Below are positions 20,803 through 64,000 of a stretch of DNA of 64,000 nt, in pieces. How positions within the stretch are numbered: position 1 is the stretch's first letter; each line of letters opens with the position of its first letter. Position numbers and translations under genes: made by a program. The DNA lies in the NCBI GenBank assembly GCA_017506865.1, contig JAFCMP010000445.1, positions 1,798,001-1,862,000 of the forward strand. Direction: 5' to 3'. The stretch comes from Tribonema minus. Its lineage: Eukaryota > Sar > Xanthophyceae > Tribonematales > Tribonemataceae. The notes under the pieces are model-generated. The model was not told the DNA's origin. It made no database searches and worked only from the letters and a program-made list of their open reading frames with translations.

Positions 20803-21035
20803 GTGCACGTTGCAGGCCCGTGTCGCCAGCCTCTGCATGGAGGGCCATGATGGTATAGTATGGCGATGACCGCCAGCACCCCGCCCAGGAAGCACATAAG
20901 CAACTGCTGCTGCTGCCCCAATGCATGCGAGGATGAGGGCCGCGGCGCTTGCAGCTACCCCAGCGCCCTTGCAGTGGCCACACTTGTAGGAACCCGTGGA
21001 CCTATACCCAGCAGCTGCATCGCACACGGCGCAGT
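20755..21035 (-). CDS. gene B: CAVC/first-TM exon, frame ambiguous
   Basis: The acceptor GTTTGTTGCAG is followed by AC TGC GCC GTG TGC, giving CAVCDAAAGYRSTGSYKCGH then a first hydrophobic helix (GVAASAAALILACIGAAAAV). This is the Cys-rich to TM transition of the family. The frame entering at the acceptor is open to CAG|GTAAAG. However, only the frame shifted by one base after the (GCA)4 run continues hydrophobic (LLMCFLGGVLAVIAILYHHG) and exits in the phase that the 19259 exon needs. A one-base slip in the GCA run, or an unrecognised intron, is likely. The entry phase (two bases completing a codon) matters for the link to gene C. Confidence 0.65.
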
Positions 21036-21434
21036 CTGCAACAAACATGCGGCATAGTATTTTGAAGGAGCTCAGACCCCAGCTAAGCGTTGCTGCACAA
21101 CTTCCATTTACAAAAGAGGCGAAAGCAGCGGCAGGTCTCAAATTATACTTTTGTTTGAAACCAAGCATCCGCACACAGCCAAACTGCGCAGTCCCTTGAG
21201 CAAGTTCAAGTTGCCCAGACCTTTGTCCAACAGTTGTCAAGGAAATGCGCACAAAACCAAACAACAAAAACCTGTTCATGTCCAGCACTGCACTGCGTTA
21301 GATCTGAAGCTTCTAGTATTCCGGTGTGGCTATGTGCCATGCCGCACATGGGACAGAACCGCTCGGTGCAGAGGCACACATGAGCACTGTCACCACTGGG
21401 AGTAGAAATACACAATTTGCTGCAAGCCTCATTA

Positions 21435-21461
21435 CCGTAGGAAACGGATTATAATACCCCC
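21435..21461 (+). mobile_element. terminal inverted repeat of a TA-inserting DNA transposon, copy 1
   Basis: CCGTAGGAAACGGATTATAA followed by TACCCCC is identical to 63245-63271. TA precedes both. Downstream are C-run motifs (AAGACCCCCCCGTC) like those following the other copy. Only one end is seen here in this orientation. Confidence 0.65.
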
Positions 21462-21868
21462 TCGTCTTGCAGTTTCAGGCCCTCGTTTCTAAGACGGCGG
21501 GGTACTATACAAAGTAGCCCCTCTTATACAGAGTTTCTCTTGTCTTAGCATCCTTCCAAGCCTCGTGTTGACAAGACCCCCCCGTCCTCGGCAATTTATC
21601 TACTCAATTTGCGCTCTTCAGCAGGCAGCGATAGCCTCATCTGCTGGTCAATCAAGCGACCGTGATGGTGGGAACACCAGCCTTCTGGTTTTCACGTAAA
21701 TCTGCAGCATCGTGCAGCACGATCGCCGGCATTCAGCTCGCCGAACGTACTCAGATTCAGAGATTGCCACCTAGCCTGGCTGAGCCACAATAGGCTGTGA
21801 GCAGCTAGTGCACAGCACAACATATGCCATAGCTGCGCGCTACTCAGAGCTCGCTGCGCTGAGAACAC

Positions 21869-24646
21869 ATGCAAGTATTGGCACACGGCGCCGCTAACAC
21901 CACCTCTCTCTACCACGAACTTCAACAAGGGAACGGGGAGGCGCACACGCTCACGGCGCAGACGTCGGCGTCGCTGGCGCTGGCGTGCCGCATCGCCACG
22001 ACGCTGGCGGATCACCAGCGCCGCGAGCATCCGAATGTGCCTGCCGACTTTCTCGCGCGTACGCAGGCGATCGACGACGAGTGTTTGACTCTCCACCGAG
22101 CCGGCGCGGGCACCTACTACGCCGTGGAACCCGAGCTGCTACTCTGCGCATGCGCCTCGTGCGGCGAGCCAGGGTGCGTGCGCACGAATTTGCACCAGCG
22201 CGACCACCTGTACAAGTCCCGGGGGGCGGCCGCAACGCAGCGGCCACACGGGCCCCGCGTCGCGCCTCTGCCCCCCATCCTCCCCCTCTCTACAGCCAGC
22301 GGCGGCGCGCGCGGCCCCGGCGCCCGCGCAGCTGCCGCTGTGGCTGCGGCAGGGCCAACATGGCGCAGCGCGCTTCCGCTCTGGACGCTGGCGCCGCTCT
22401 CGCCCGCGCGCGCAGCGCTTGACGACCTCTCCTTTGACTATGTTCTGCAGCAGCAACTGGTGGTCGGCCGCTGCATTCGCCTGGAGCACCGCTCGGACTT
22501 CACAGCCGCCTTGACGGCCACGCTGGCGGGCCTCCGGGAAGCGCAGACGGCGGTAGCGCAGGCACACGGGGTTGAGGCAGCGGCACAGGCGTCCGCCACA
22601 GCCGGTGCATGGTGCAAGCTGTTGCATCTGCTGCCGTGCCTGCTGCTTGTACCCGACGGCTCCCTGCCGCGGGCGCACCGTTTTGCGGCCTTCGAGGCAG
22701 GCGACCTGGACCTGCTCACGCGCACAGCGCTGGCCTTCTGCCGCCGCGGCGCTGCCCGTGCGTGCACGCGCCGCGCTAGGTCTATGACGGAGGCGGCGGC
22801 GGCAGTGCGGGAGCGCGCGGCGGCGACGGCGCGGCAGCCGGGCGGCGTCGGGCGCGCCGCGCGGCTGCTGGCGGAGGGTGCTGACACATCTGCCCCCCGC
22901 GACTCCGCTACCTTGCATAAACTGCAGGCGAAACACCCAGCTGGCGATGCGTCTGCGAAGCTGGATGCCGCGGCATCGCGGGCGCGCAGCTTGGTGGCGG
23001 CGGCGGCGCTGGCGGCGCCGGCACCACTCAACTGCGCTTCATTCACGGCGGACGGGCTACGCGAGGCCATCCTCGCCGCCAACCCTGGCTCGGCCGCCGG
23101 TCCCTCTGGGCTGCGCAACTCCCACCTCCAGCAGTGCGTCCGGCACACGGCGCACACATCGGGGCGCACGGTTGACTGGCTCCTTGAGCTGCTGGCGCGG
23201 CTGGGTACCGCGGTGTACTCCACCCCCGCCGCGCTGCCCGCCCCCTTTTGGCGCCTTCACGCGGCCGCGCGCCTCAGCGCTGTGGGCGAGAAGGCGCGCC
23301 CCATCGCGTGCGGCGACACCATCTGCCGCCTGTTCGCCCGCACCTTCTGCACGGACACCCGGGACCGCGTCTCCGCGCTGCTGGAACCAATTGGCCAGTT
23401 TGGGGTCGGCGCGCGGGGGGGCGCAGAGAGAGTGGCGCTCATGGCGCAGCTCACGCATGAGTGCGGCGGCGTGCTCCTTGCCATTGACGGCAGTAATGCC
23501 TTCAACGCGCTGTCGCGCTCGGCAGTCCTCACCGCGGTGGCCGAGCATCTGCCTGGCCTGTACGGCTACGTCGAGCACATCTACGGCCCCGGCCGGGCCC
23601 CTTGGCTACAATTTGGCCTAGATGGGCACGCCGACGCCGCCATCATCCTCTCCCAACAGGGCGTGCAGCAGGGCAACCCATTGGGGCCGCTGCTGTTCGC
23701 GCTGGCACTGCGCGGCACCATGGTGGCTGCCCGCGCCAAGTTCCCGCAACTGGCGCTTCCGGGCTACCTCGATGACCTCACCATCATGACGCCCAGCTGT
23801 GACGCGCCGGTGCTCGGCCACGTTGGCCGCGCGTTCTGCTTCATACAACAGGCGCTGAGCGAGCTCAACATTCAGGTCAAGGTCACGATATGCGCGGCGC
23901 TGGTGCCGGCCTCAGGCGGCGCCCGCGAGCGCGCCGCCGCCGTCTTTGCCGCCGCCAATGTCCCCGTACCAGTATGTGACGACGGCATCACGCTGATGGG
24001 GGTGCCGGTCGGCACCGAGGGCTTCGTGCGCGCGCAAGTGGCGGCGACCCTTCGTGCCCCCGGCACCGACCGCCTGGTTGCGGAGCTTGTGCAGATGGAG
24101 GATGTGCAGGCTGCCTTCTCCATTCTGCGTCTTGCCGTCCCCGCCCGCGCAGGGCATGTCTCGCGCAATACAGCGCCATCCCTCACGCACGAGGAGCTAC
24201 GGCGCTTCGACGCCATCACGCTAGCGGCCGTGGCCGCGCTGGCGCAGGAGCCATCGGCGGGTCTTACGCCGCCGGCCCACCAGGGCGCGCCGGCGGCGGG
24301 TGACGATTGCCGCGGCCCGCCGGCGGTTTCGGCGGCGGCGGCGCCGCCCTCTCTGTGGGCGGCGGCAGTGGCATGGGTACGCGGCGCCGACTGGGGTGGC
24401 GAGGCCCCAGTGACGCTACCAGCACATCAGCAGGTACGCGTGCATCTGCGGCTGGGGAGTGGTGGCTTTGGCGTGCTGGGCGCGGCGCCCCGTGCATGTG
24501 CCGCATTTGCTGCACGTTCCCTCGAGTGCATGGGGCCGGCACTGGCGGCATTTCCAGTCGCGGCACGCAGCCGCGTCCTAGAGCATGCCCGCTACCTTCA
24601 CCCAGATAGCTACCTGCCTGCAGCAGCTGCGCAGCGGCAGCGATGA
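21869..24646 (+). CDS. retrotransposon ORF with reverse transcriptase domain
   Basis: The 925-codon frame probably begins in flanking DNA, because the element appears truncated near 21.925 kb. The N-terminal part has a C..C motif (CACASCGEPGC). The RT domain starts about residue 395: SAAGPSGLRNSHLQ, RPIACGDTICRLFARTF, QFGVGARGGAERV, LLAIDGSNAFNALSR (first catalytic Asp), QQGVQQGNPLGPLLFALAL and GYLDDLTI, the YLDD active site. These are the conserved RT blocks of the protist/algal non-LTR group lacking an upstream APE endonuclease. It ends in a GCAGC-rich stretch, and the following ORF lies in the +1 frame. Confidence 0.9.
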   Translation: MQVLAHGAANTTSLYHELQQGNGEAHTLTAQTSASLALACRIATTLADHQRREHPNVPADFLARTQAIDDECLTLHRAGAGTYYAVEPELLLCACASCGEPGCVRTNLHQRDHLYKSRGAAATQRPHGPRVAPLPPILPLSTASGGARGPGARAAAAVAAAGPTWRSALPLWTLAPLSPARAALDDLSFDYVLQQQLVVGRCIRLEHRSDFTAALTATLAGLREAQTAVAQAHGVEAAAQASATAGAWCKLLHLLPCLLLVPDGSLPRAHRFAAFEAGDLDLLTRTALAFCRRGAARACTRRARSMTEAAAAVRERAAATARQPGGVGRAARLLAEGADTSAPRDSATLHKLQAKHPAGDASAKLDAAASRARSLVAAAALAAPAPLNCASFTADGLREAILAANPGSAAGPSGLRNSHLQQCVRHTAHTSGRTVDWLLELLARLGTAVYSTPAALPAPFWRLHAAARLSAVGEKARPIACGDTICRLFARTFCTDTRDRVSALLEPIGQFGVGARGGAERVALMAQLTHECGGVLLAIDGSNAFNALSRSAVLTAVAEHLPGLYGYVEHIYGPGRAPWLQFGLDGHADAAIILSQQGVQQGNPLGPLLFALALRGTMVAARAKFPQLALPGYLDDLTIMTPSCDAPVLGHVGRAFCFIQQALSELNIQVKVTICAALVPASGGARERAAAVFAAANVPVPVCDDGITLMGVPVGTEGFVRAQVAATLRAPGTDRLVAELVQMEDVQAAFSILRLAVPARAGHVSRNTAPSLTHEELRRFDAITLAAVAALAQEPSAGLTPPAHQGAPAAGDDCRGPPAVSAAAAPPSLWAAAVAWVRGADWGGEAPVTLPAHQQVRVHLRLGSGGFGVLGAAPRACAAFAARSLECMGPALAAFPVAARSRVLEHARYLHPDSYLPAAAAQRQR

Positions 24647-25940
24647 GGCTGCAGCGGCCCTCGCACTGCTCCTGCCCACGGTCTGGTACCAGGACTGGCG
24701 CCAGGACGACGGCGCATGGCGGGCGCTGCGCGATCTGCTGCAACGGGCAGGCGGAGCTGCGGGGCCGGGCATGCGGACTCGCGCCGGCGCGCGCCGCGCT
24801 GCTGCGCCAGCGGTGGCGCGCGAGCCAGGCTCTGCCCAGGCCCCGCCGGCCGCCGTGCTGCCGCGGCGTCAAGCGGCGCTATCACGGGTGCTAGACGCAG
24901 CGCTCGCCGCCACGCAGCTGCGTCGGCTTGAAGCAGCAAATGCGTTGGAAGCAGTCGCGGCGTGGCGCAGCGGCGCCTCTAAGGGGGCCATGGGTTTCTT
25001 GGCGCAATTGCCGAGCACTGACCCAGCGGAGACCATGTCCCCGCCGGAATTCCGCGAGACGCTGCGGCGCCACCTGGGCGTGGAGCGCCCCGCCCCCGCT
25101 GCGGCGCGGTGCCCCAAGTGCCATAGACCAGTGGACTCGGGTGCCCACCTGCGCCGCTGCACACAAGGGCTTAACGTCACGCGACACAACTTGCTCGCAG
25201 ACGCGCTCTTTCAGCTGCTCAAGCAGGTGGCCCACCTCCGCGGTCTCGACCGGGACACCCTTGCCCCCTTCCGCCGCTACGCGGCGCGCCACGGGTTCAA
25301 CAAGTTCATGGACATCGTCTTTGGCAGCAACCAGATCTGCCTTCCAGTCCCTAAAGTGCAGCCGAGCGCCGACGCGGTAGCAGCAGGCCGGTGCACTAAA
25401 CTGCGCGGCGGCTTTGAAGTAGCTTGTTGCATAGACGTCACCATACGTGACAGCTCATGCCCCTCCCGCCTCCGTCAGGCTCAGGGGGGCGCGCGCGATG
25501 TGCAGCGCGTGCTTGAATCGGCTTCGCAGGAAAAGATAGACACATACGTAGTCTCAGGGGCCCTGGACCCCACTACACACACCCTATTTTCCGCAGCCTT
25601 TGACCACTTCGGCGCTATGTCACGCGACACCCAAGCGCTGCTACACGCACTCGCCGAGCAGAGCTCGCAGGGCAGCTACAATCTCGCACAGCGCGTTGCC
25701 TTCTGGCGCCGCCGCACCTCCCTCGCGCTACAGCGCGCGCTCACACGTGTCGTGATCGACAACTGGAACGCAGTCATTGCCCCTGATGGCGACGTCAGCG
25801 CTTACCGCCGCATCGCACTGTTGCAAGTGCCACGGCCCTCGCCGGCCAGCGCCGAACCGCCGGCCCCTCCGTAGATTTAGTTATTGCAAGCCCGATTTAT
25901 CGTGCGCGCAGCCCATGCGGTCCAGGACATAATATACAAC
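21925..25940 (+). mobile_element. non-LTR retrotransposon, 5'-truncated copy
   Basis: GC content jumps at about 21.93 kb, and the right end at 25940 is fixed by comparison with the inverted copy ending at 63556: the sequences agree to ...GGACATAATATACAAC and then diverge. It has no LTRs, integrase or RNase H. It encodes RT and a C-terminal zinc-finger/nuclease-like region, with a 3' UTR of only about 65 bp and no poly(A). The left end is an estimate. The target duplication is not intact around this copy (see findings). Confidence 0.85.
24585..25874 (+). CDS. retrotransposon C-terminal ORF: zinc finger and restriction-like nuclease region
   Basis: The 429-codon frame overlaps the RT ORF by 62 nt in the +1 frame, so it is either normally fused to it and separated here by an indel in the GCAGC repeats, or expressed by frameshifting. 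CPKCHRPVDSGAHLRRC is a CCHC-type knuckle. It is followed by GGFEVACCIDVTIRDSS, then ASQEKIDTYVVSGAL and FDHFGAMSRDTQALLHALAE. The D...ExK spacing and the trailing F...G....L block resemble the restriction-like endonuclease of R2-type elements; catalytic residues are assigned tentatively. The end is identical in frame to the copy at 63622. Confidence 0.8.
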   Translation: MPATFTQIATCLQQLRSGSDEAAAALALLLPTVWYQDWRQDDGAWRALRDLLQRAGGAAGPGMRTRAGARRAAAPAVAREPGSAQAPPAAVLPRRQAALSRVLDAALAATQLRRLEAANALEAVAAWRSGASKGAMGFLAQLPSTDPAETMSPPEFRETLRRHLGVERPAPAAARCPKCHRPVDSGAHLRRCTQGLNVTRHNLLADALFQLLKQVAHLRGLDRDTLAPFRRYAARHGFNKFMDIVFGSNQICLPVPKVQPSADAVAAGRCTKLRGGFEVACCIDVTIRDSSCPSRLRQAQGGARDVQRVLESASQEKIDTYVVSGALDPTTHTLFSAAFDHFGAMSRDTQALLHALAEQSSQGSYNLAQRVAFWRRRTSLALQRALTRVVIDNWNAVIAPDGDVSAYRRIALLQVPRPSPASAEPPAPP

Positions 25941-26743
25941 AATCAGGCCGTGATGAAGTTGAAGTTGATATCGCACACACGCACAGCCCATGCTGAGGTC
26001 TGGTTCTCTTTGGCACTGACGTGGCTATTCATGCTTTGCCTCCTGGTTCTCGGTTGTCACTCTGAGTGACAATTACAGCTGTACTAGTACTCGCGAGCCT
26101 TGTGTCTGCGCGGACCCCTCGATTGTCCATCTCTGCCTACTCCCTGGCATGGTGGTGAGCTATACGTTCTCAGATATAAGTCTCCTGCAGCACAAGTAAA
26201 AGCCAACTGAAAGGGCTTGCACATGCACCAAAGTGTTTCCTAACACCGGTGAGGCCTCCCATCATACGATATATATATCATAGTACCTCCCGGTACAAGG
26301 AACCGGGTCCATGCTCATGAAAAGAAGGGGCAACTTAAATACTGCTAAATTAAGTCGATCTTGTACAAATTACACCCAAGATGCATAGCACCTTGTGCGC
26401 CACGGACCATTGGAGTGATGGCAACAAGTTGCAGAAAGAATTGTACCACTGCATTGTGTGAGTGTGTAGTGGCAGTGCACGCGTATCTTGTACCAGCGAA
26501 CTAAGGTTGTCGTCCACCGCTGCCTTGGCAGCTCGTGAGTTTGTAGGCCTTGCTCATACAACATGTCCACGCCACGTTATGTGGCATGGTGGTGCACGCT
26601 TTGTTGTGTCACCGACGTGTGGTGCTGGTGTTCTAATGCTGGACCAGGTGCTCACTTGTTGAGGAATGCACGCGTTGACGTGTTCCTTATTTATATATGA
26701 TTTATCATTTCTCTCTCAATGTGTCAGCTGGCGCATTGCACAG
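25941..26743 (+). other. left flank of the gene C array
   Basis: Intron-like sequence related to segments that recur through the array (CTGGTTCTC...GTCACTCTGAG, GGTGAGCTATAC, CACAAGTAAAAGCCAACTG). No separate exon was identified. Confidence 0.5.
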
Positions 26744-26818
26744 GCGGAGCCATCTACACCCAAGACGATGCCGACACGACAATTGCCAACTCACTTTTTA
26801 CCAGCAACAGTGCGCACA
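26744..26818 (+). CDS. gene C: 25-codon beta-helix cassette exon 1
   Basis: The acceptor CATTGCACAG and donor A|GTAAGT bound 75 bp, phase 1-1. It encodes GAIYTQDDADTTIANSLFTS then NSAH, one Pmp-like coil. The same acceptor context (GGCACATTGCACAGG) precedes most other cassettes. Confidence 0.75.
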
Positions 26819-27140
26819 GTAAGTTTCAGCACATCTACTTGATCTATTTGTTGTCGCCCCGCGCGGCGACTGCAGCAAAGCTTTGTCACTGCGACATGCT
26901 GTGCTGAGCTGCTGCTGTTGCTTCTGCTTTCACTCCATCCTTTTTATTGGGCTGGCGCCCATGTGGTATATTAGTGGTCGTCTGCCGTTGCCATGATGGA
27001 CCCTACTTTACTGACACCAATTAATGCGGCAGAGGATCAATGATGCTGCCTTACTGTCATTGAGTTAGTTGTGTAAAGTCATGATTGTGGTGTACGTGGG
27101 AGCCGTGAAGAGGCGTAGCGGTTGTTGCTGTGGCATTCCC

Positions 27141-27143
<3 letters not shown>

Positions 27144-27173
<30 letters not shown>
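27144..27173 (+). repeat. (CTG)10 in array module
   Basis: Ten pure CTG units inside the recurrent intronic module flanked by CATGGAAGCTGTGG-like and GTTGAC...GACTC-like sequence. Confidence 0.95.
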
Positions 27174-27175
<2 letters not shown>

Positions 27176-29378
27176 CTATTGTTGACGGGTGCCTGCGCTG
27201 ACCCCTTGTGCTCTTGTCACTTCGCCGCTTGACATCGCCCATGGTGCACATGGCAACATTGGCTGGCGAACTGTGGCGGCTGCTGCGGTACTGAATATCG
27301 ACTCTTCTTCCTTCAAAACTCTGCAGACGGTCAGTGAAAAGGCTCGATTTTTAAATACTTGTTCTGCATCAGCTCAATGACATTAGGAAGTTTGCGTTGG
27401 ACATTATAGTCGAGACATGAAACAATTGAGTCGTGATGCGCTTAAAGTCCTGCAGCACAGGCGAAGGTCAACTCTGAGGGCTTTTGCATGCACCAGTGTA
27501 TTGCACATCCCTCGATATCACCGTCTTGACTCGGTTTGATATCGGACTCATGACAGAAGGGACAACACTGCCAAATGCAGCTTGCGCACTTGGACACCAA
27601 CATAAATCTTGTGCAAAGCACTACACGCGTATGGGCTGCTGAAGCAATGGGGGTCGAAGTACTGCCTTTTTTCTTCTTAATAAGTCGGCTGCCTGCCTGA
27701 TAGAATGCGACAATTTTTCATGTAGGACATGTGCACCAGTTAAGTTGGCCGTTGTATACGCAGGCTTTTATGCAAGTCACCTCTAACAGACCACAGTGAC
27801 TGTACACATCAGTCAGCAGGCCCTCACGTTGCTGATTTTGTCTGGGAAGTGCTGTGGCGTTTGAGTGCAATTTTTTTAGTTGTATTTCATTTTTCACTCA
27901 CAGCAAGCTGCCCAGTGCCCGCACAAAGCTGAAACAGGCTCAGACCGGCCTGCAAACGTTGAAGGGCAGCGTTGCATCTTAGATGTCTTCAAGAGAGCAC
28001 CAGCTGCCACACGCACGTTGCAGCAACCGCAACATCCGGTACAGCGCATTGTCACAGCACATGCATGATACACACACACGCTTGACAGAAAAGGGGTTGG
28101 CTTGAACTAGTTTGGCACATGTATTTTCCAGGCTTGAATAGTGTTGGGCCAAGTACCGTTCCAATCAGGTGTCTGGCCGGCTTCAGTATAGATAAGACGG
28201 TGCCATAGCAGGTTGTGTACGTGTTGAGAGTGTCGGTGCACGGGCTTGCTTGTAGCAGACAGATTTGCTTGCTGTCCACCACTTGGCAGATGGTTGATGA
28301 CAAGTGTTACTCATGTAACAAGTCCAATGCTGCTGCTGCCGCTGCAGCTGACGCGCTCTTGTTGACATGTGCCTGTGATAACGCTTCTGTGCTCATTTTA
28401 CTTTGCCTCTTGCTATCTGCCTGTGGTGCATGTGGTGGCCAACTGCACTGATGGCGGCTGCTGCGGTGGTGGATGCCGAATGGTCTTGCATCATAACTGG
28501 AAAGAGGGTAAGTGACAAGGCATGACTCATATCCTCCACCTGCGATCTCGAGCTCAGATCTGTGTCATGTCAACAACAGGAAGTTCGCTGTGAACAGGAT
28601 GACTGAGGGATCATCGGAAAACCAATTCGTGATGGTTTTTGAGTTGGACCCGCACAGCTCAGCTCATGATGATGTCGGATCCTGTTGGGCACTGACGCAG
28701 CTGTTCAAGGTTTGCCTCCTGGTTCCCAATGGTCACTCTGAGCGACACATGCACTACCTGCAAGTCTTGTGTCTGCACGGACCCCATGGTTGTCCATCTC
28801 TCAGGCTGCCAGATGCTCTGGCTAGGTGATGAGCTAAACGTTCTCAGGTGTGCATCTCCTGCAGCATGAGCGAAAGTCAATCGCAAGGGCTTTTGCTTGC
28901 ACCTCTGTGTTTTAGGATTGGCGGACACCTTCTATGATTATCTGATCAACCCTTCCCTGGCAGTAACAGGCTCAGGGTTTGTGCACATGAATAACAGGGG
29001 CAAGATTGCCAATATAGGCTGGCGTAAATTTCACAACCGCAGAAGCAGAGCATCGCATACGTCATAGACCATTGGAACTTTAAAAAGCATACCAAGATAG
29101 ATGCCAAGGCATGTTGTGGTCGTGTTGCATTGATGCATGCATTTTCTGTATCAGTGAGATTTGGGCATGGTCTACCATTCACTTGGCAGATGTATAGCAA
29201 CAAGGCCTTGCTCATACAATTTGTCCATGTAACAGCATGTAACATGTGGTGGTGCATGCTTATTGTGCCGGTGTCAGCGGTCGATGGCTGATGCTCAGTT
29301 ACTGAGGAATGCGCGGCGCATTGACCTGTTCCTTAGTTTCCCATTGCTCTCTGAATGTATAAATGGCACATTGCACAG

Positions 29379-29453
29379 GCGGAGCCATCTTCACCAAAGA
29401 TGGCGCCGGCATGACCGTCGCCAACTAATCTTTCTTCAAAAACGAAGCAAAAT
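29379..29453 (+). pseudogene. gene C: cassette exon 2 with in-frame TAA
   Basis: Same splice context and 75-bp, phase 1-1 structure (GAIFTKDGAGMTVAN), but the codon after AAC is TAA where the paralogs have TCA or TCG. The rest of the coil (SFFKNEAK) is intact. Inclusion would truncate the protein; skipping keeps the frame. Confidence 0.75.
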
Positions 29454-29834
29454 GTAAGTGCCACCAAAACTACTAGTTCTTCCATTGGCACCCCGCTTGG
29501 TATCTGCAGCAACAACTTTCCTAGATTTCCCTGGCATGCGTACTACTAACGCTGCTGCTGCTACTGCTTCTGCTACTGCTGTTGTGATTATCAGCGCTTG
29601 TGCTGGGTCAGACTCTGTGCTTGTTTCATCCTCCTTCTTGGGCTGCCGCCCATGTGGTATAATTGGGCGGCCATCTTCCTCTGCCATGATGTACCCTGCT
29701 CTCAATGACTCCAATCAATGAGGCAGGGGATGAGTGATGCAGACTGACTGAGCCATTGAGCTACTTGCACAATGTCATGATGGCGGCATGCATGGAAACT
29801 GTGGCGCGCATTTGTTGCCAAGGGCATCCCAATG

Positions 29835-29897
29835 CTGCTGCTGCTGCAGCAGCTGCTGCTGCCGCTGCTGCTGCCGCTGCTGCTGCTGCTGCTGCTG
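29835..29897 (+). repeat. interrupted CTG/CAG tract, 63 bp
   Basis: CTG units interrupted by CAGCAG and CCG, within the same intronic module type. Confidence 0.9.
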
Positions 29898-29900
29898 GGC

Positions 29901-53642: not shown

Positions 53643-54014
53643 CTTCTTCAGTGCCAGACTCCTGAATAATCTGCATTAGACAGCATGGACAACGGACAAC
53701 ACAACCATGTCAAGATGATATTGACAGTGCAAAGCTCAGCTCATGCTTAGGTTGGGTCCTGTTGGGCACTGACGCGGCTGTTCATACTGGCCTCCTGTTT
53801 CTTACTGAGTACTCCTAGCAATGCATGCACTAATCTCGAGTCTTGTGTCATGCACTACATTGAGTCTTGTGTCTGCATGGGTCCCTTAAAAGTTGCGCCC
53901 TGGCACGATTGTGAGCTAAACGGTCTCAGGTGTAACAATGCATCATCACCACTCAAGAGCACATGCACAGAGCGTTGCTGCAGACACAAACTGCAGCCAG
54001 CTGTCAGGTGTACT

Positions 54015-55650: not shown

Positions 55651-55795
55651 AATGTTGCGCTGTATGGGCTTTTGTGTCAGTGCAGTTTGAGTGTGGTGCA
55701 GCCTGCCGAAGCTGCACCAGATCGTTAAGCAAATGCTAACCCGTCTCAGGCTGTGCTAACCTGCCCCTGGGTGTCAATAACGGCACATTGCGCAG

Positions 55796-55890
55796 GTGGA
55801 GCCATCCGCAACTCAGAAGCTGCTAGCGAGGTAGTTGTCAACTCATCTTTTGTAGATTACCTTTGCAGGCGCCGCAGTGCCGACTGACAT
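55796..55890 (+). pseudogene. gene C: degenerate cassette exon 10
   Basis: CATTGCGCAG acceptor and a start matching the cassettes (GAIRNSEAASEVVVNSSF). The N.A.G end and donor are not recognisable, and the frame reaches TGA at about 55886-55888. It is probably not spliced in, or it is decayed. Confidence 0.5.
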
Positions 55891-56523
55891 GGTCTGACGG
55901 AGGCACCTGCATGCTAGTGGCTACTGGTTGCAAACTCAATTGCATAGTACATATCTTGCTGCCTGTGCTGTTCGCCATTGTGTGTGTGGCTGCGGTGGAT
56001 ATAGCAACATAGAATGGCCGCTTCACATGCATGGCAGCTGCATCACGAAGGCCGGTAATCTGGTTTACCAATGGAATTTGACACAAGGTGAACGACGCGC
56101 CCATGCTGGTTGCACATGATTGCAGCACAAATTCTGTTGTGCCTGCCGTTGCTGCTGCTTCGCTAACATGTCTGCTCTCTTATTGAGAATGTCTAGCTTG
56201 CATCGAGTTGGTGTTTGCTTTCGCGTTGTGTACGTTGCAACACCTCATGGCGATCTGCACCATCTTCATGGTGGCTGCTCACTTGACTTCTACTTGTGCT
56301 CGCCTCTTGCTGTTCGACTGCGTTGCCTGATTCAGTGTCAGTCAGCCATCTGCAACGCTGGCGGCTGCGTCACGACAATCGAAAACCATGTTTCACCGTT
56401 GCTCACCAGCCGGTGCATAGCAGGAAAATTGCTGACCTCGTCAAGTCTTATTTATGAATGGGATAACGTCGCATGAAATCACTGCATCTGCGAGACCTGG
56501 TTGTGGCCACTGTCTGCTAGCAG

Positions 56524-56642
56524 CTGCTTCTGCTGCTGCTGCTGCTGCTGCGGCGGCTGCTGCTGTAACAGATGCTGCTGCCGCCGCCGCCGCTGCTGCC
56601 CGCCGCTGCTGCTGCTGCTGCGGCTACTGCTGCTGTTGCTGC
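56524..56642 (+). repeat. long interrupted CTG/CCG tract
   Basis: About 120 bp of CTG, CGG, CCG and CTA units just upstream of cassette exon 11. The poly-Ala frame across it is a shadow. Confidence 0.9.
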
Positions 56643-56742
56643 TTTTATCGCATTGACATGCGCACCGAAAAACCTGCGTTGTGCCTGAAAAATGTCATGA
56701 CACCTTTACGCTCGTTATTTGACGTTCGCGCGCATTGCTCAG

Positions 56743-56817
56743 GTGGGGCCCTAATTAACAACAATGGGAGGGCCATGTCAGTCTCTACGTCCACTTTCAC
56801 CAACAACTCTGCAACAG
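56743..56817 (+). CDS. gene C: 25-codon beta-helix cassette exon 11
   Basis: CATTGCTCAG acceptor, G|GTATAT donor, 75 bp, phase 1-1: GALINNNGRAMSVSTSTFTN then NSATG. In frame, and the first exon of the coherent 3' chain. Confidence 0.75.
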
Positions 56818-57276
56818 GTATATGCGGACCCTTTGCTGATTGCACATAGTTGCATTTTGAGCAGCTCCCGCAGCTGTGTCAGCACACTGTTGTGGTGGCA
56901 TCTGGCTGCTGCAGCTGCTGCTGTGTTCTTCACACCAACTGGCACTGACTTTCTGTGTGCTGTACTTTTCCTGATGTTTGGTGTCCGGCGGCGGTGCTTG
57001 TGGCACTGTGGATTGGTGCTGGCGTTGGCCACGTCATGATGGTCTCCATCTCATCGATTGTCGGCATGTGATTGAATTTGGCAGACGGTGACGGTGAGTG
57101 AACATCCGCAGCCCGCTTGTGTCTACTGGTGCCATGTTACCTGCCGGAGTGTCCGCGTTTCCGGCATGTGCGTGGTGATGCAAATGCATTATTTTGCTGA
57201 GAAACGTGTTTGCTTATCACCTCTGAGCTTTCCCCCTCCGCATGCTCGGCGCTTGGTTGCGGAGCGCACTGCACAG

Positions 57277-57351
57277 GTGGGACCATTGGCAAGTATGGCA
57301 GTACCTCCATGACGATTGCCGACTCCGTCTTCAACAGCAATTCCGCCTCCG
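57277..57351 (+). CDS. gene C: 25-codon beta-helix cassette exon 12
   Basis: ACTGCACAG acceptor, G|GTGAGG donor, 75 bp, phase 1-1: GTIGKYGSTSMTIADSVFNS then NSASG. In frame; its exit phase fits the 58112 exon. Confidence 0.75.
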
Positions 57352-58111
57352 GTGAGGGCCCTTTACCATGGCTGTGTGCCGTCATTGTTCCACATTTTTG
57401 GCTGGCATTGCTGTTGCCAGTCCCACTCGTGATCCACCACATGCAGAAGCAGCTCAAGAACACGCAGAATCGCAATGGCAGAGTGTTGACACTCCATGCA
57501 CTACAGAAAGCCTGGAAGGGTGGCATGGTATCTTCCCAACACGTATTGGACTGTCCACTCTCTGTAAGCCCGCTGTCCGGCATCACCAGATTCGTGCCAG
57601 ATGATCATCATGTTTTCACCCATTCGAATGCTGGAATTTGTTGCCTCAGCAAGTTTGCATGTTGCTTCGCTACTTTGTTTGGATTTCTTGAGATTGCATT
57701 TACCGGATACGCCACTCCAAGAGTCTCCTAGGATGTTGTTCTGCGGTCACACAAGAGCCGCTGAAGATGATGATGTCTTCGGTTGCACAAGACTTAACCC
57801 AGGCCCAAGCTGCTTTTTCTGCAGCAATACTTACAGCAAAAGTGAGAGCCCGGTTGTGTTGCCTGTTGCATTGATTACAAATTGCGTAGAGATGTTTGAA
57901 GAGTGCCGTGGACCTCCCTGGCCTGCCGATTGAGTGTCGTTGCTAAAAAAAGTGCATTGTAGGCAAAATGCCATTGGACTATAACGCCCAGAGACATGGC
58001 ACACGTCCATCATCCACACTAGACAGATATTCACCGCCTCGGATGATTTTCTTTTTGCTTCATACTGGCCATATCTCCAATGCTGTGGTTTGGTTTGTGG
58101 TTGTGACGCAG

Positions 58112-58431
58112 GTGATGGCGGATGCGTGTATGCCGCTGGTGCTGGGAAACTGTCGTTGCTCCGCACTATCTTCTTTAGTTGTGATGCGCCTAGCGGCATG
58201 GGGGGGGCGGTTTATGCCAGGCAATCTCTGCTGAACTGTACAGACAGCAGCATAACAGGCAGCACTGCGCTGCAGGGTGCTGTGGTGGTGACAACAAGCT
58301 TGTCAACTGACAACTCACCCAGCAGCCTTTCTGACGGCAGCTATAGTGACACCAGTACGATTCACATCGGCAAGACGGCAACAGCTCGAATACATGTACA
58401 CAACAGCCGCTTTGTCAGCAATTCGGCAATG
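58112..58431 (+). CDS. gene C: multi-coil beta-helix exon
   Basis: TGTGACGCAG acceptor and ATG|GTGAGT donor, phase 1 to 0, 106 codons. It encodes two to three coils: GDGGCVYAAGAGKLSLLRTI, MGGAVYARQSLLNCTDSSIT and the final IHVHNSRFVSNSAM with the F..N.A motif. Unlike the cassettes it is a larger, unique exon. Confidence 0.75.
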
Positions 58432-58869
58432 GTGAGTACATGCCATGCCATCAACGATTTGCAAATAGACCGTTGTTTGCATGTGGCTCTCTCAGAGCCC
58501 TTGAAGCAGATTTGACACAGGAACTGCACGAATTCACAAGTCCAGGTAGCAGTGCAGATAAAAAATGTGGAGAAAAATGGATTTAAGGGTCACACGAGAC
58601 AAATTGCCAAGCAACAATCTCATAATATATGCATGTGTGACGCTTTTTGATTGCAGGATCACATGTGCATGCAGATGCCATTGAGCTGTGTCACATTTCT
58701 TAAATGCCATGAATACGTTTTTCTACTTTCGTAGTGTCCGATATGTGCTGCCTTTCAGTGTAATTCCTAAGGACCGGGAAGCAGGTTAATGGATTGCTTG
58801 TGATCACATTTATGAGATAATTCACTCAAGGTTTCAGTTGTGGCTTATACTTTGTGTGTCATGCTGCAG

Positions 58870-59035
58870 GCGCGTGGCGGAGCTCTGCTCATTTTTGGCA
58901 ACGTCAGCAGTGATATATGTAACGTTTTTTTCTCACAAACATCGCTCGTGACGGCGGTGCTATCGCACTGGGCGGAGACCAGTTGTGGGACCTGACGCTA
59001 AGCAACTGTAGTTTTGATCACAACACAGCGCTCAG
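58870..59035 (+). CDS. gene C: beta-helix exon with a one-base deletion
   Basis: The acceptor ATGCTGCAG gives ARGGALLIFGNVSSDICNVF; the exon ends at CTCAG|GTTAGT with DLTLSNCSFDHNTAL. The two parts are in different frames. Entry phase 0 and the exit phase 2 demanded by the 59602 exon need a length of 2 mod 3, but it is 166 bp (1 mod 3). One T missing from the T7 run at 58925-58931 accounts for everything. It is either a real frameshift or a homopolymer error. Confidence 0.7.
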
Positions 59036-59601
59036 GTTAGTACACCTTGTGCTGCACATGAGCTTGTATCACTCCACCAGAGCTGCTGCTAGCCAGCACT
59101 GCAGTTGCAACCCCCAGTTGACTTACTGCATGTGTGATTGGCTGTCAGTGTATATTTGTTCGCAACTTGACAGCAGCACTAAAGAATGCACGTGGATGTG
59201 CTTGCAGCACAGAGCAGGCGTCTCTTGCTGCGGCGCCGGTCAGTGGGAAGCACTTGGCTTCAGGCGGATGGTTTTAAGAATAACTTTGGCTACCAGTCAA
59301 AGTTAACAGCCAGTTACACATTCCACCAACATCCTAAACCGTTGCCTTTCAAAACTTGCTGGCAAATTCGACAATGCCATTGAGCGACAGTAATTCTTAT
59401 ATGTAACCAAGGGCCCACGCCAAGCTTCTGCTATGCAGTGCCATACATTGTTTGTCTTGTAGTTTTGACGCCAGTGTGCAACAACCCTGCTCTTGGAGAT
59501 TGAACACATTTTGGTGCTCTCCTTGATGTGAGTAATTGCCTTCCTCATTCAAAGCCAAGCGACACCAGGGTGACACATCCGTGCGTGTTCATCTGCCACA
59601 G

Positions 59602-59717
59602 CGCTGGTGGAGCAGTTCAGCTGGATGGCAGTATTCCAACCATTACCATTGCAGGTGGCACGTCGTTCAAGGGGAATTCCGCCAGCATCGGTGATGGTAT
59701 AATGTCAACAAAGCCTG
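59602..59717 (+). CDS. gene C: beta-helix exon
   Basis: CTGCCACAG acceptor, phase 2 entry, phase 1 exit at G|GTGGGT. AGGAVQLDGSIPTITIAGGT then SFKGNSASIGDG carries the GGAV and F..N.A coil motifs. Confidence 0.7.
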
Positions 59718-60694
59718 GTGGGTGTTGGTGATGACCAATTATTGCTAGGGTTGGCAAATTCGTGTTCTGCAGGAACACCATATAATAGAAGTATACTCTG
59801 TAGTGTAAAATGTAAAGTTGTGCTGAGAAGTGCCTGTTGACCCGCCTGGTCGATTTTGATTTGTCAGATGCGAATTTTCACATTTCAAAGTAGACGTATC
59901 CGCCATCATGTACGCGTGTCTGGAAATATGTTTGTCTACCGGTACATATAAAATCTCAATCTACGGTATTTGGCCATCTTCATTCAACAATGTTGTGTCT
60001 CGCATGCCCTTGCACCTTAGCCAAGTTTGCTTACGCACAGATCATTGTTATCTGTTCCTATTTCCCGCTTATTGCTCGGCCCATGCTGAGCAGACTTTGG
60101 CCACAGGGCCAGGGACTGCACATTGTCATCAGCTTCATAGTCTCAAACTCGAACGTCGTGACTTACTTTCTACTGGCTTTTCCTGCTTTGTGGCAGTACT
60201 GTATGTGCCGGCTTCTGGGCAAACATAACTCAGCAAGGTGACCTGCCGTACAGTGCAGAGGTGATGTTGAGGGTGCACGATAGCAGCCTGATGTCTGAGG
60301 CCAGCAATGTCATCAGCACTGCATACTGCAGTAACACGTAAGGTAACACCAACGCCAAGCCACTGGCAGCAACGGCATTAGAGCGACACACTGTAGCGGA
60401 TGTAGCTGCCAGACGTGCCACACAACATTCAGCCACACTCACCGCCACATTTTATGGCATAATGAGGTTTCAGCCATCAAACTATGCCCGTCTGTCGTTG
60501 CTCCTATTCTATTGCGTGCAGTGACTAACACCTATCATTTGTGACAGTGAGATGGCAGCGGTTGCTGGTGCTCTCGGCAGGAGCTATTGCAACTGGTGGC
60601 ACAAGCGGCAGCTCAAAGGAAATGCGTGATTATAATGCTCTCTGTAGAGGCAAATCTGAATCAAAAGGATGAGGGTCTGTTTTGCCAGGCAAAA

Positions 60695-60724
60695 GGGGGT
60701 GGGTGGGGGGGTGGGGGGGGGGGG
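60695..60724 (+). repeat. G-run tract
   Basis: Runs of 5, 3, 7 and 12 G separated by single T form a potential G-quadruplex on the plus (coding) strand in a gene C intron. Confidence 0.85.
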
Positions 60725-60916
60725 CTGATTGGATCTGCCGGCTATCTGACTTGGCCAAAGCCTGTCAGCGTAGTCGGCGTGGCCCAGCTGGCCCAATTAT
60801 GGCACTGCATAGCTGGTTGCCTACATGTTCATTGAAATAACGCATTTGTTTGCCAAGTGGAATGTACTTGTTTTCAGAGTTTTCTCTTGCTTCTTGATGG
60901 CTTCCAGTTGATGCAG

Positions 60917-61053
60917 CACAGTGGGCGGCACTGCTCATGACTGCGGCATTTGAAGGCAACACAGCATCTTCATGCTACGATGGAGGGTTTGGGTCATCAC
61001 CAGCCTGGCTGATAGCTGGGAATTCATGTGCAGATGTTGATGCTGTACAACAG
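60917..61053 (+). CDS. gene C: exon, end of beta-helix
   Basis: TTGATGCAG acceptor, CAG|GTAAGC donor, phase 1 to 0. QWAALLMTAAFEGNTASSC contains the last F.GN.A coil signature; the following WLIAGNSCADVDAVQQ is the transition to the Cys-rich region. Confidence 0.65.
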
Positions 61054-62072
61054 GTAAGCGTTTGGTCATTCATAGTTGCTGTTGGCTCGCGCTTCTCGTT
61101 TATCGTTTCATGTGCCTTGTCAGTAAGCATTCTGTCAATTGCAGCTTCTGCCTCTTCACTTACTTACTACTATGACACCTGTCATATGCAACTGCACGGA
61201 CAAACACAGCCTATTGCACTTACCAGCAGCCATATACTTCAAGGTATCATGACGAAAAAGCCGCCCACATCATTGAGCGTGGGACATGATGATGCATTGA
61301 GGGGCTAGAGACCACGTTTAACTTAGAGCATGAACAGCTGCTAAGACGGGGGGTTCACGAGACAAGGCCCCCCTCCCAATGTTTCTACAAACGTAGGTAC
61401 ACATTGTGCTCAACACATGTGTCAGTCACGCTGTCTAGGCCGCCCTTCGCCATCTTGAAATCTCATGCACTTAAAGCCTGTGCAGGCCATCATGAATCTG
61501 AATCATCACACACCGTGTCTCGCATGCCATCGAGAAGACGGCTAGAATAAATGCAATTTTCAGTATCATCCTGAAATTAGATTTTTGGTTGAGTCCGCAT
61601 TTCAACTTGCCTGAATTACTGGCATGAGAGGAAGCAGTAGTGGCTACAGCAATGCTGCTGTTACAGTATACGATCAGCGCAGACTTTGTGCACTCCATGG
61701 GTGTGCCCACCTAAACGCTCTACTGTGGCGGCGGCAGGCACAGGCACGGCACAACGCAAGAGCTGTTGTTGCTCATGCATCATGGAGGTGATCACGCATG
61801 GGGCAGGCCAACCAATTATCTCATTCATGTGGCCGAAACTTATCAGTTTCAGCCACTGTGTTGAGCTTAGAATTGCGGGTTCTAGACGCTGGCATAATGT
61901 TTATGACCCACCGCATGTGATGCACCTCTGTGTGTTGGCGGCGCTTAGGCAGGCGGTACACCATGATGGTGCTCGAGTATGAAATGGGCTACCTGAGGAG
62001 CTTGTGGTGCATCAGAAGCAGAAGTCCGTTAGACGGGGGGGTCCTAATTGCCACAACACATCACAATGGTAC

Positions 62073-62450
62073 ATATGGACTTGTATTTATAAAGGCCCAA
62101 GGGAGGCCGGGTTGCCTATGCAATCGAAAAGCTTGCGTCAACGCAGCAGCCTAGTCTGCGCTGTGCCCTAGGAGTTTGGATACCGGCGCCGCAACACAGC
62201 CCAGCATTCGCGCTCCACGTGTGTATGCCATGAAGCGCTCCGCCAACTCCCGCGCCAGTGATATGCTCAGCTCAATGTGGATCTGACGCTTAGCTAACCC
62301 GGCCTTGCGTAACACATCTGCCTTCCCCCCCCCTGAGCACAGTGCTGAGTGCATTGCCAACTCCTTAACAAAAAGGCTTGTCTGCTTGCCCAGCCGTCCG
62401 TACGACTCCTGCACGAATGGCACAAAAGTACACGTTCCTTGCCTTGACGT
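62073..62450 (-). pseudogene. 5'-truncated non-LTR retroelement fragment (second family)
   Basis: On the minus strand it encodes CTFVPFVQESYGRLGKQTSL, VKELAMHSAL and LSISLARELAERFMAYTRG. This is the tail typical of protist RT polyproteins and is topologically similar to, but distinct from, the tail of the 21.9-kb element. Its 3' 186 bp match 42786-42971. The 5' limit near 62450 is approximate. It lies in the intron between the 60917 and 62500 exons. Confidence 0.7.
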
Positions 62451-62461
62451 AGCTAGAGTAC

Positions 62462-62474
62462 TACTTCCGAAGTA
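62462..62474. repeat. palindromic insertion TACTTCCGAAGTA
   Basis: A 13-bp variant of the TACTTCGAAGTA palindrome, lying at the 5' side of the retroelement fragment. Confidence 0.55.
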
Positions 62475-62499
62475 CACAGTTACATGTGTTCTCTGACAG

Positions 62500-62550
62500 G
62501 TCATCCACTCTCAGACTGGCTCCCAGGAATGCTCTGACCATCTCTCCGGC
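62500..62550 (+). CDS. gene C: short linker exon
   Basis: TTCTCTGACAG acceptor and GGC|GTAAGT donor, 17 codons, phase 0-0 (VIHSQTGSQECSDHLSG). It is called because its splice sites and phase join the exons on either side. Confidence 0.55.
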
Positions 62551-62613
62551 GTAAGTATCGTTGCATTCTTGTGCTCTTGTGTTTTGTTGTTGCCTGAATG
62601 TATGCTGCTGCAG

Positions 62614-62968
62614 GCGGTCAAACATTCTGGGGAGCAGATCGTCAGAGCAGGCACTCCCTACTACGAGGTGGAATCTGGCACACCACGTGTTTGCTGTGGA
62701 CCAGGCTACGTTGCCATCAGTGCTTCCTTCTGTGCGCCGTGCAATGGTGCCCAATACTCCTGTCCAGACTACGGCACAACAGCGGAGACTATAACACTTG
62801 AAGAAGGATACTGGCGTGGTGCTGTGGACATAACGCCAGATAATCTTGTAACGGTGCACAAGTGCTGGAATGCAGCTGCTTGTAGTGGCCAAAGAGTATA
62901 CTTGCGGAATACGACCCAGCTGGAGGACCAATACAAGAATTACTGCGCAACTGGCTACAAGGGTCCAT
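62614..62968 (+). CDS. gene C: Cys-rich domain exon preceding the membrane domain
   Basis: ATGCTGCTGCAG acceptor, phase 0; 118 codons and one base to the donor T|GTGAGC. CCGPGYVAISASFCAPCNGA, CPDYGTT, EEGYWRGAVDITP, KCWNAAACSG and YCATGYKGP reproduce the Cys-rich module (C..C...Y....., GYWR, C...AC.G, C..GY.GP) that stands directly before CAVC and the first TM helix in this family. The next expected codons are missing downstream on this strand within the window, but they match the start of the gene B exon at 21035 in phase and motif. Confidence 0.8.
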
Positions 62969-63244
62969 GTGAGCGAGCTGCTTTAGAACGAGTTTGGTCA
63001 CCACGTTGGAAGACCTTCCTAGTGAAAGCGTGAAGGTCATCAAACATCATGTTGAAGTGTTGCACGTCTTGGGCACAAAGCCTCAATGTACTTGTTCCAC
63101 TGTTTGCTTGAGTGCTCGAAGGGCCATGAACATAGAGGTTGACTCAAGTCAACTCAAGCGTTTTGGATACGGAGGTTTACACAGTGTGCTGCGACACTGG
63201 CTGTGAGATCATTCCATTGTAACGAGTGCCATTGGGGGCACATA

Positions 63245-63271
63245 CCGTAGGAAACGGATTATAATACCCCC
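63245..63271 (+). mobile_element. terminal inverted repeat of a TA-inserting DNA transposon, copy 2
   Basis: Identical to 21435-21461 and likewise preceded by TA. It is followed by repeated GTATAATACCCCCCC / GTATAAGACCCCCCC motifs to about 63375, resembling subterminal repeats. Confidence 0.65.
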
Positions 63272-63555
63272 CCTTGTATAATACCCCCCCTGTGTATAAG
63301 ACCCCCCCGTCTTGTTGTTTTGCGCTTCTCATTGCTAAGACAGGGGCCACTTTGTATAAGACCCCCAATTCTTGTAAGCTGATGCAGATGACCAGAGGCA
63401 GATAAAATACTATGAAAATATTGTTCTGTTGTCTCCCGTTTTCTGTCCATTCTTGGTCTCTCGTTTTCCGTCCATTATTGGAGATGATAAAAAAATCTTA
63501 CTATCTATTCGTAGGACGATCAGCCACTTCAAGTTTGAACTGCTTTTTTGTTGAA

Positions 63556-64000
63556 GTTGTATATTATGTCCTGGACCGCATGGGCTGCGCGCACGATAAA
63601 TCGGGCTTGTAATAACTAAATCTACGGAGGGGCCGGCGGTTCGGCGCTGGCCGGCGAGGGCCGCGGCACTTGCAACAGTGCGATGCGGCGGTAAGCGCTG
63701 ACGTCGCCATCAGGGGCAATGACTGCGCTCCAGTTGTCGATCACGACACGTGTGAGCGCGCGCTGTAGCGCGAGGGAGGTGCGGCGGCGCCAGAAGGCAA
63801 CGCGCTGCGCGAGATTGTAGCTGCCCTGCGAGCTTTGCTCGGCGAGTGCGTGTAGCAGCGCTTGGGTGTCGCGTGACATAGCGCCGAAGTGGTCAAAGGC
63901 TGCGGAAAATAGGGTGTGTGTAGTGGGGTCCAGGGCCCCTGAGACTACGTATGTGTCTATCTTTTCCTGCGAAGCCGATTCTAGCACGCGCTGCACATCG
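63556..64000 (-). mobile_element. non-LTR retrotransposon, second copy (3' end, runs off the window)
   Basis: Reverse complement of the 3' end of the 21.9-25.9-kb element, including the 3' UTR and terminus. The two copies diverge exactly at 63556/25940. Confidence 0.95.
63622..64000 (-). CDS. retrotransposon C-terminal ORF, partial
   Basis: Encodes the end of the nuclease-region ORF (VLESASQEKIDTY onward). It differs from the other copy in the visible part by a single residue (DNWSAVI against DNWNAVI), so the copies are recent or have been homogenised. The ORF continues beyond the right edge. Confidence 0.9.
   Translation of the reverse strand, partial: DVQRVLESASQEKIDTYVVSGALDPTTHTLFSAAFDHFGAMSRDTQALLHALAEQSSQGSYNLAQRVAFWRRRTSLALQRALTRVVIDNWSAVIAPDGDVSAYRRIALLQVPRPSPASAEPPAPP

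What the first reader, a model, noticed from the sequence alone, without database searches (positions are those of the whole stretch)
21035..63556. Genes C and B look like two halves of one gene split by an inversion between retroelement copies
Seen: gene C (plus) ends at 62968 in phase 1 after a GYKGP motif. Gene B (minus) starts at 21035 with two bases completing a codon, then CAVC. Joined, they read GP-Y-CAVC, the normal order of this family. Each half is followed or preceded by an antisense copy of the same retroelement, the copies are inverted to each other, and both 3' termini (25940, 63556) are at breakpoints. Flipping 25941-63555 would put the 62968 exon and the 21035 exon on either side of one retroelement in one intron. 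It would also turn the two identical 27-bp TIRs (21435, 63245) into a correct inverted pair with TA flanks. In addition, AACTTCAACAA occurs both at the presumed 5' edge of copy 1 (about 21.92 kb) and directly after the 3' end of copy 2, as if the target duplication had been separated. Inference: a real inversion allele, or an assembly misjoin at the repeat.
Basis: partly seen in the sequence, partly recalled or inferred. Interest (0 to 1): 0.87.

Follow-up and report, generated by a model that had tools for sequence, protein, structure and literature searches.

The report
Retroelement-made inversion splits an algal gene
In this yellow-green alga's genome assembly, two copies of a jumping element appear to have recombined with each other and flipped the 37.6-kb stretch between them, cutting one very large membrane-protein gene into three pieces; the event is well documented here but is of a kind already known.

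Summary
The window lies in Tribonema minus. Genes "C" and "B" are parts of one large gene. Window 25941-63555 is inverted relative to the ancestral order, as if two inverted retroelement copies had recombined. Flipping it rejoins the halves of one TA-flanked TIR transposon and gives both copies matching target duplications (11 and 7 bp; own pairs 5 and 0). Both copies look chimeric, with one switch near the 5' end (79 informative sites, 2 then 77). The second breakpoint, flipped, restores a repeat unit of the exon array (10 of 27 hits span it, controls 0 of 12 and 0 of 26). In 10 of 10 other contig pairs C precedes B on one strand. The gene also has frameshifts, so it was probably decaying. 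A real inversion (0.75) cannot be told from an assembly misjoin (0.20) without reads. New member of a known kind: transposon-made inversion by ectopic recombination.

The parts
17180..17607 (-). Last coding exon region of gene B (3' end of the split gene); frame changes near 17340 relative to P0002
   Evidence: tblastn of P0002 in two frames and of P0001; conserved with neighbour gene 2
17968..18591 (-). Multi-TM exon of gene B (TM is my reading of the sequence)
   Evidence: tblastn P0001 100%, P0002 76%; 78% protein identity to gene 2
18995..19144 (-). Internal exon of gene B
   Evidence: tblastn P0002 80%
20755..21035 (-). Exon B (YCAVC... first TM), the exon that should follow exon C
   Evidence: splice sites and phase; P0002 protein continues through most of it
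21433..21928 (.). Left half of a TA-flanked TIR DNA transposon that sat in the C-B intron
   Evidence: 87-89% to complete copies L038, L039, L040
21918..21928 (+). 5' target duplication AACTTCAACAA of original retroelement copy 1
21930..25940 (+). Retroelement copy 1, 5'-truncated, chimeric: first 150 bp differ from the young majority at 5 of 150 sites, the rest at 0-0.9% per bin
   Evidence: RVT_1 match below the gathering cut-off
22078..22171 (.). Interval that holds the crossover (84 identical bp)
25938..25944 (+). Target duplication AACAATC that pairs with the 5' flank of copy 2 (the AAC is shared with the element end)
25941..63555 (.). Inverted segment, 37,615 bp; its ends are the 3' flanks exchanged between the two copies
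25981..62968 (+). Gene C: middle part of the split gene, beta-helix-type exon array ending in exon C (62614-62968)
   Evidence: repeat families, exon C splice sites, related arrays of both neighbours on minus
63243..63555 (.). Right half of the same TIR DNA transposon, reversed
   Evidence: 92-95% to complete copies L038, L039, L040 over the last 156-167 bp
63548..63558 (-). 3' target duplication AACTTCAACAA of original copy 1, now beside copy 2 (three bases shared with the element end)
63556..64000 (-). 3' end of retroelement copy 2 (continues to about 68,413 in window numbering, L031:4413), chimeric the other way
4878..5396 (-). N-terminal exon of the neighbouring gene 0, used as reference for the gene's start

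Best explanation
Read from sequence: one giant minus-strand gene (about 58 kb, window coordinates about 75.3 kb down to 17.2 kb) held two retroelement copies in two introns, in opposite orientation. Copy 1 sat inside a TIR DNA transposon in the intron between exons C and B; copy 2 sat in an intron of the exon array. The assembled arrangement is what a single crossover between the two copies, at element positions 148-241, would give: the 37.6 kb between them is flipped, so the gene's middle is on the plus strand while its 5' end (beyond the window) and 3' end (gene B) stay on the minus strand. Inferred: that the crossover happened in the alga (non-allelic homologous recombination) and not in the assembler, and that no normal transcript can now join exon C to exon B. 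The gene copy also carries frameshifts (10 nt missing in its first exon, one frame change in its last), so it was probably already, or has since become, a pseudogene.
For: TIR element halves rejoin with TA on both sides, as in complete copies. Exchanged target duplications, 11 and 7 bp, own pairs 5 and 0, five truncated control copies 7-11. Copy 2 differs from the 24-copy majority at 5 of 820 sites upstream of element position 0 but at 1-5% per bin after 240; copy 1 differs at 5 of 150 in its first 150 bp and at 0-0.9% per bin after that; of 79 sites where the C441 copy differs from the majority and matches exactly one window copy, the first 2 match copy 1 and the other 77 match copy 2. Right breakpoint: the flipped join spans array units in 10 of 27 hits, as-assembled joins in 0 of 12 and 0 of 26. 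Neighbours have C then B on one strand, introns 638 and 751 bp; 10 of 10 other contig pairs likewise. Contigs C63 and C441 hold B, element and C segment in un-inverted order. N-terminal exon on minus beyond copy 2, none found before gene C.
Against: No reads were seen; an assembler that switched copies inside the element would leave the same marks. The assembly was unsure here: C63, C441 and C479 show no substitution against each other over 3.15 kb beside the element, yet stay separate contigs, and inside the element C479 departs from C63 at 7 sites, each time matching copy 2, so copies are mixed at that contig end. The 5' side of the crossover rests on 2 sites; over the first 150 bp copy 1 is as far from the C441 copy (5 of 150) as from the majority (5 of 150), and at three C441-specific sites there both window copies follow the majority. 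The 11-bp duplication includes the element's preferred target AACTTCAA: unrelated control pairs mostly share 7-10 bp. C63/C441 are not a clean un-inverted allele: they lack 21005-21929, and their element reaches 127 bp further 5'.
Confidence: 0.75

Rival explanations
1. Assembly misjoin: the chromosome is un-inverted, and the assembler crossed from one retroelement copy to the other on both sides, flipping the segment on paper.
For: Many near-identical copies of the element (38 matches listed, a lower bound); contig ends of the second copy pile up here; C479 is a mosaic inside the element; exons C and B are open.
Against: No N in the 94 kb examined. The two copies differ by 2.3-5% between element positions 240 and 3200, about 1% in the last 800 bp, and the switch sits in the eighth-longest identical tract (84 bp), not in the 250-bp one. 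The assembly kept apart sequences that differ by 1.1-1.2%. The gene bears frameshifts, so a broken gene is no surprise.
Confidence: 0.2
2. C and B are two separate genes on opposite strands that only look like halves of one.
For: They are on opposite strands 41 kb apart in the assembly; NCBI's model of B is a partial protein (P0001).
Against: Phase-matched splice sites, TIR halves, 10 of 10 other pairs joined on one strand, no TM end for C and no N-terminal exon before it found on plus.
Confidence: 0.02
3. An inversion with another mechanism: a double-strand-break repair or hybrid-element transposition that happened to leave element copies at both ends.
For: The second-copy contigs show that other kinds of junction also form here: 21004 joined to an element 127 bp upstream of the window copy's 5' end.
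Against: Reciprocal chimerism with one switch and exchanged duplications is what homologous exchange predicts; the hybrid-element model predicts identical copies (passage of PMC2775673), and these differ.
Confidence: 0.03

Closest known systems
Transposon-made inversions by ectopic recombination, e.g. inversion 2z3 of Drosophila buzzatii made by Galileo (Delprat et al. 2009, PMC2775673; passages seen)
   Same: Two copies in opposite orientation at the two ends, exchanged target duplications, both copies chimeric: the same three marks are found here.
   Different: Here the element is of non-LTR type, nested in a TIR transposon and in introns of one gene, the host is a xanthophyte alga, and the segment is 37.6 kb inside a gene. 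No population sample of un-inverted chromosomes is on hand.
Inversions between human and chimpanzee attributed to ectopic recombination of LINEs and SINEs (mentioned in PMC2775673, passage)
   Same: Exchange between inverted copies of non-LTR elements.
   Different: Those are differences between species; here the order is inferred from tandem paralogs, the nested transposon and a second copy within one assembly.

Membership tests
Inversion by ectopic recombination between transposable elements | Copies of one element family at both ends, in opposite orientation | tested here: met
   Arms 25496-25940 / 63556-64000, 99% complementary; copy 2 read to its 5' end
Inversion by ectopic recombination between transposable elements | Target duplications exchanged between the copies | tested here: met
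   11 bp and 7 bp for swapped pairs, 5 and 0 for own pairs; of 200,000 random window places 81 reach 7 with copy 2's flank and 46 reach 11 with copy 1's; the 11-bp one contains the preferred target motif
Inversion by ectopic recombination between transposable elements | Both copies chimeric, reciprocally | tested here: met
   One switch between positions 148 and 241, 2 sites then 77; copy 2's upstream 820 bp are of the young type; copy 1's part before the switch rests on 2 sites
Inversion by ectopic recombination between transposable elements | Non-inverted order exists or is ancestral | tested here: met
   Neighbour genes and 10 of 10 other pairs; C63 and C441. Presence of the un-inverted order on the homologous chromosome itself was not shown
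Inversion by ectopic recombination between transposable elements | Inverted junctions seen in reads or by PCR | not testable with these tools
   No reads on hand
Non-LTR retrotransposon (LINE), R2-like | Reverse transcriptase domain | tested here: met
   RVT_1 26.4 bits, below the 29.6 cut-off, in the window copy; 33.1 and 42.6 bits in relatives P0121 and P0124
Non-LTR retrotransposon (LINE), R2-like | Fixed 3' end, variable 5' truncation, short target duplications | tested here: met
   Common 3' end in 29 copies read; five truncated copies with 7-11 bp duplications
Non-LTR retrotransposon (LINE), R2-like | R2 kinship and restriction-like endonuclease | tested here: inconclusive
   The only two solved relatives found are R2 proteins, at E 0.001 and 0.0013; the endonuclease was not tested
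TA-targeting TIR DNA transposon | Terminal inverted repeats with TA on both sides | tested here: met
   Rejoined element and copies L038, L040 end in CCGTAGG or CCGCAGG / CCTACGG next to TA; transposase not looked for

The most novel reading that the evidence does not exclude
The inverted retroelement pair works as a recurrent switch: the middle of a giant surface-protein gene flips back and forth within the strain, so that some cells carry the joined gene and others the split one, and the differing second copy (C63/C441/C479) records an earlier round.
Probability: 0.03. Interest if true: 0.75.

Novelty: new member of a known kind. Interest (0 to 1): 0.38.

Why it matters
It is an unusually complete molecular record of a transposable-element inversion: nested transposon, both exchanged target duplications, chimeric copies and two neighbours in the original order, all on one contig. 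If real, it shows that ectopic exchange between 4-5 kb retroelements can break up very large genes in a xanthophyte alga, and it warns that gene models here (NCBI's partial protein P0001) describe fragments. If the reads do not support it, it is a concrete assembly error to correct.

Tried and rejected
Considered and rejected: two independent genes (splice phases, TIR halves and speak against it); a breakpoint at the element 3' ends themselves (one search puts the exchange near the 5' end); C63/C441/C479 as a clean un-inverted allele with the same insertion (their element has a different 5' end, and over 1,167 bp it scores higher with seven copies elsewhere, on C522, C35, C526, C423, C202 twice and C515, than with copy 2). 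Whether they are an allele or a segmental duplication was not settled: the right flank and 26.0-27.1 kb were found at high identity only on C445, but searches failed to list even the window itself, so absence there says nothing.

Led nowhere: Pfam on gene parts (no family for the five frames of genes B, C and gene 0 that were scanned); dN/dS (the script stopped with an error after three values, and those include frameshifted stretches, so they are not used); papers on the Tribonema assembly (searches list no genome report, an announcement recalled by me, is not held); papers on such elements in green algae (none).

Rows left out before counting: one search shows matches over 80% identity and 60 bp only; over 100 bp only; one search leaves out the five truncated copies of the 29; a hit counts as spanning if it reaches 20 bases past the junction on both sides.

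Full report
What the window is. It is G000:C445:1798001-1862000, in a 158,181,000-base assembly of 554 contigs. A protein 100% identical to the window's minus-strand frame 17851-18702 over the part it covers (70% of that frame) is recorded from Tribonema minus on a contig of 1,973,627 bp, which is the length of C445. T. minus is a xanthophyte alga. The gene family is a large membrane protein: a beta-helix-type exon array (relative P0012 has Beta_helix, 39.6 bits against a cut-off of 25.9), then a cysteine-rich exon (C), a CAVC/first-TM exon (B) and further TM exons (TM segments are my reading; no predictor was run).

Exon C ends at 62968 in phase 1 and exon B starts at 21035 with two bases that complete TAC; the join reads GYKGP-Y-CAVC.

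Left breakpoint: a transposon cut in two. When 21433-21928 is joined to the reverse of 63243-63555, keeping one AACTTCAACAA, the result is one complete TIR element with TA on both sides (802 bp in the slightly wider join). The three other copies that were read, L038, L039 and L040, align on both sides of that point and hold no retroelement. So retroelement copy 1 was inserted in this transposon, and the two halves of the transposon now lie about 41 kb apart.

Target duplications. Swapped pairing gives 11 bp (AACTTCAACAA: 5' flank of copy 1, 3' flank of copy 2) and 7 bp (AACAATC: 5' flank of copy 2, 3' flank of copy 1). Own pairing gives 5 and 0. Five 5'-truncated copies elsewhere give 7, 7, 10, 8 and 11 with their own flanks. 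The element prefers AACTTCA: 24 of the 29 copies read have it at the 3' junction. Unrelated pairs among the five controls therefore share 7-10 bp in 19 of 20 pairings (0 in one), and the 11-bp match must be read with that in mind. The 7-bp match does not contain that motif; 81 of 200,000 random window positions would reach it.

Crossover. I compared copy 1, copy 2, the copy on contig C441 and a majority of 24 other copies. Upstream of element position 0, copy 2 differs from the majority at 5 of 820 sites; from 1600 to 2400 at 40 of 800. Copy 1 differs at 5 of 150 in the first 150 positions but at 0 to 0.9% per bin after that. Of 79 sites where the C441 copy differs from the majority and matches exactly one window copy, positions 140 and 148 match copy 1, and the 77 from 241 on match copy 2. 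One exchange between 148 and 241 explains this; that interval holds an 84-bp identical tract, the eighth longest between the two copies. The weak side is the 5' one: two sites, and over the first 150 bp copy 1 is no nearer to the C441 copy (5 of 150) than to the majority (5 of 150); at three C441-specific sites both window copies follow the majority.

Right breakpoint. The 5' flank of copy 2 and window 25941 onward, joined at AACAATC, align across the junction to ten places of the exon array (10 of 27 hits, 66-74% identity). The as-assembled neighbours of copy 1 and of copy 2, joined as controls, span in 0 of 12 and 0 of 26 hits. So copy 2 was inserted in a repeat unit of the same gene.

Order in relatives. 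The neighbour genes at C445 1772-1776 kb and 1887-1892 kb align to each other through the region (75%). Each has exon C (355 nt, same phase), an intron of 638 or 751 bp, and exon B on the same strand. Genome-wide, one search lists 70 matches to the joined C+B protein. Besides the window's own pair, ten contig pairs hold both halves within 6 kb (C445 twice, C441, C63, C201, C176, C224, C87, C190, C6); in 10 of 10 C precedes B on one strand. C441 and C63 are one sequence as far as read, so nine distinct loci. The window's pair is the only one on opposite strands. The other 47 rows are unpaired halves.

The third piece. An N-terminal exon (signal-peptide-like start by eye; 65% identical to that of neighbour gene 0 over its first 137 residues) is at window coordinates 75290-74767, minus strand, beyond copy 2. 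In the 104 kb searched (C445 1788001-1892000) none was found before gene C on the plus strand, and no CAVC/TM exon on plus beyond copy 2. So the gene ran from about 75.3 kb to 17.2 kb on the minus strand, and the flip leaves 5' end, middle and 3' end in three pieces with both breaks in introns.

State of the gene. The first exon lacks 10 nt against gene 0, a frameshift. The last exon changes frame near 17340 against P0002, and NCBI's partial model P0001 ends just there. Exons C and B are open. The neighbours are not flawless either: gene 0 changes frame within exon B, gene 2 just after CAV, with the rest of its exon B open. Either decay is common in this array or the assembly has indel errors; reads would tell.

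A second copy. Contigs C63, C441 and C479 carry parts of this locus at 1.1-1.2% divergence. Beside the element (3.15 kb) they differ from each other by indels only, no substitution; inside the element C479 differs from C63 at seven sites between 2532 and 2916, each time matching copy 2, which looks like mixing of copies at a contig end. C63 and C441 join 19073-21004, the element and 63555-60398 in the un-inverted order. But they lack 21005-21929, including the first 31 bp of exon B; their element reaches 127 bp further 5'; their exon C lacks one base; and over 1,167 bp their element is nearer to several copies elsewhere than to copy 2. They support the ancestral order but are not a simple un-inverted allele. 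Two insertions at one favoured site, or a later repair event with another element as template, would explain them; I did not decide.

Real or assembled? All marks above show the exchange, not where it took place. For a real event: no N in 94 kb, 2.3-5% difference between the copies from 240 to 3200 (about 1% in the last 800 bp), a switch outside the longest identical tracts, an assembly that separates 1.1% variants, a gene that already tolerates damage. Against: a repeat-rich locus with redundant contig ends and one mosaic contig end here. I give 0.75 to a real inversion by exchange between the copies and 0.20 to a misjoin.

Known kind. Delprat et al. (PMC2775673; passages seen) used opposite orientation, exchanged target duplications and chimeric copies as evidence of ectopic recombination for a Drosophila inversion. 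All three are met here. Six paper searches gave no report on this locus in their listings; that is a limited library.

Noticed in passing
G000 C61, C78, C97, C157, C145, C30, C35; L002, L014, L016 5' flanks: The retroelement often sits directly beside another copy: 14 of 38 listed matches form 7 adjacent pairs with gaps of -1 to 156 bp (6 head-to-tail, 1 tail-to-tail), and 3 of 5 truncated copies have the 3' end of another copy as 5' flank. Its 3' junction recreates the preferred target AACTTCAA, which may feed tandem growth.
   Followed up: partly
C445 about 1772-1803 kb, 1815-1873 kb, 1887-1934 kb: A tandem array of three giant genes of this family, all minus strand apart from the inverted part, with neighbouring sequence duplicated too (window 2.0-12.5 kb matches 1870-1884 kb mostly at 71-75%, two short stretches at 89%). 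The outer limits of genes 0 and 2 are inferred from N-terminal matches.
   Followed up: partly
window 62066-62428 and 42782-42974: A repeat of about 362 bp present at 98-99% in 35 listed places of the genome, evidently a young short element; part of it occurs again in the window, and it lies in both flanking stretches L033 and L034.
   Followed up: no
L031:6588-7013: A 425-bp repeat at 97-99% in 39 other listed places that also matches itself reversed at about 70%, a long imperfect palindrome.
   Followed up: no
window 54150-55075: A repeat of about 900 bp found in whole or part at 71-86% on 28 other contigs; the second copy on C479 stops matching the window close to it, at 55167.
   Followed up: no
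window 16006-16798 and about 17842-17852, against C63:337849-347707: The second copy lacks about 793 bp at 16006-16798 and has about 5.5 kb extra near window 17850, so the two versions differ by several insertions besides the inversion.
   Followed up: no
window 21930-25940 versus surroundings: The retroelement stretch is 68-71% G+C in a neighbourhood of about 50%.
   Followed up: no
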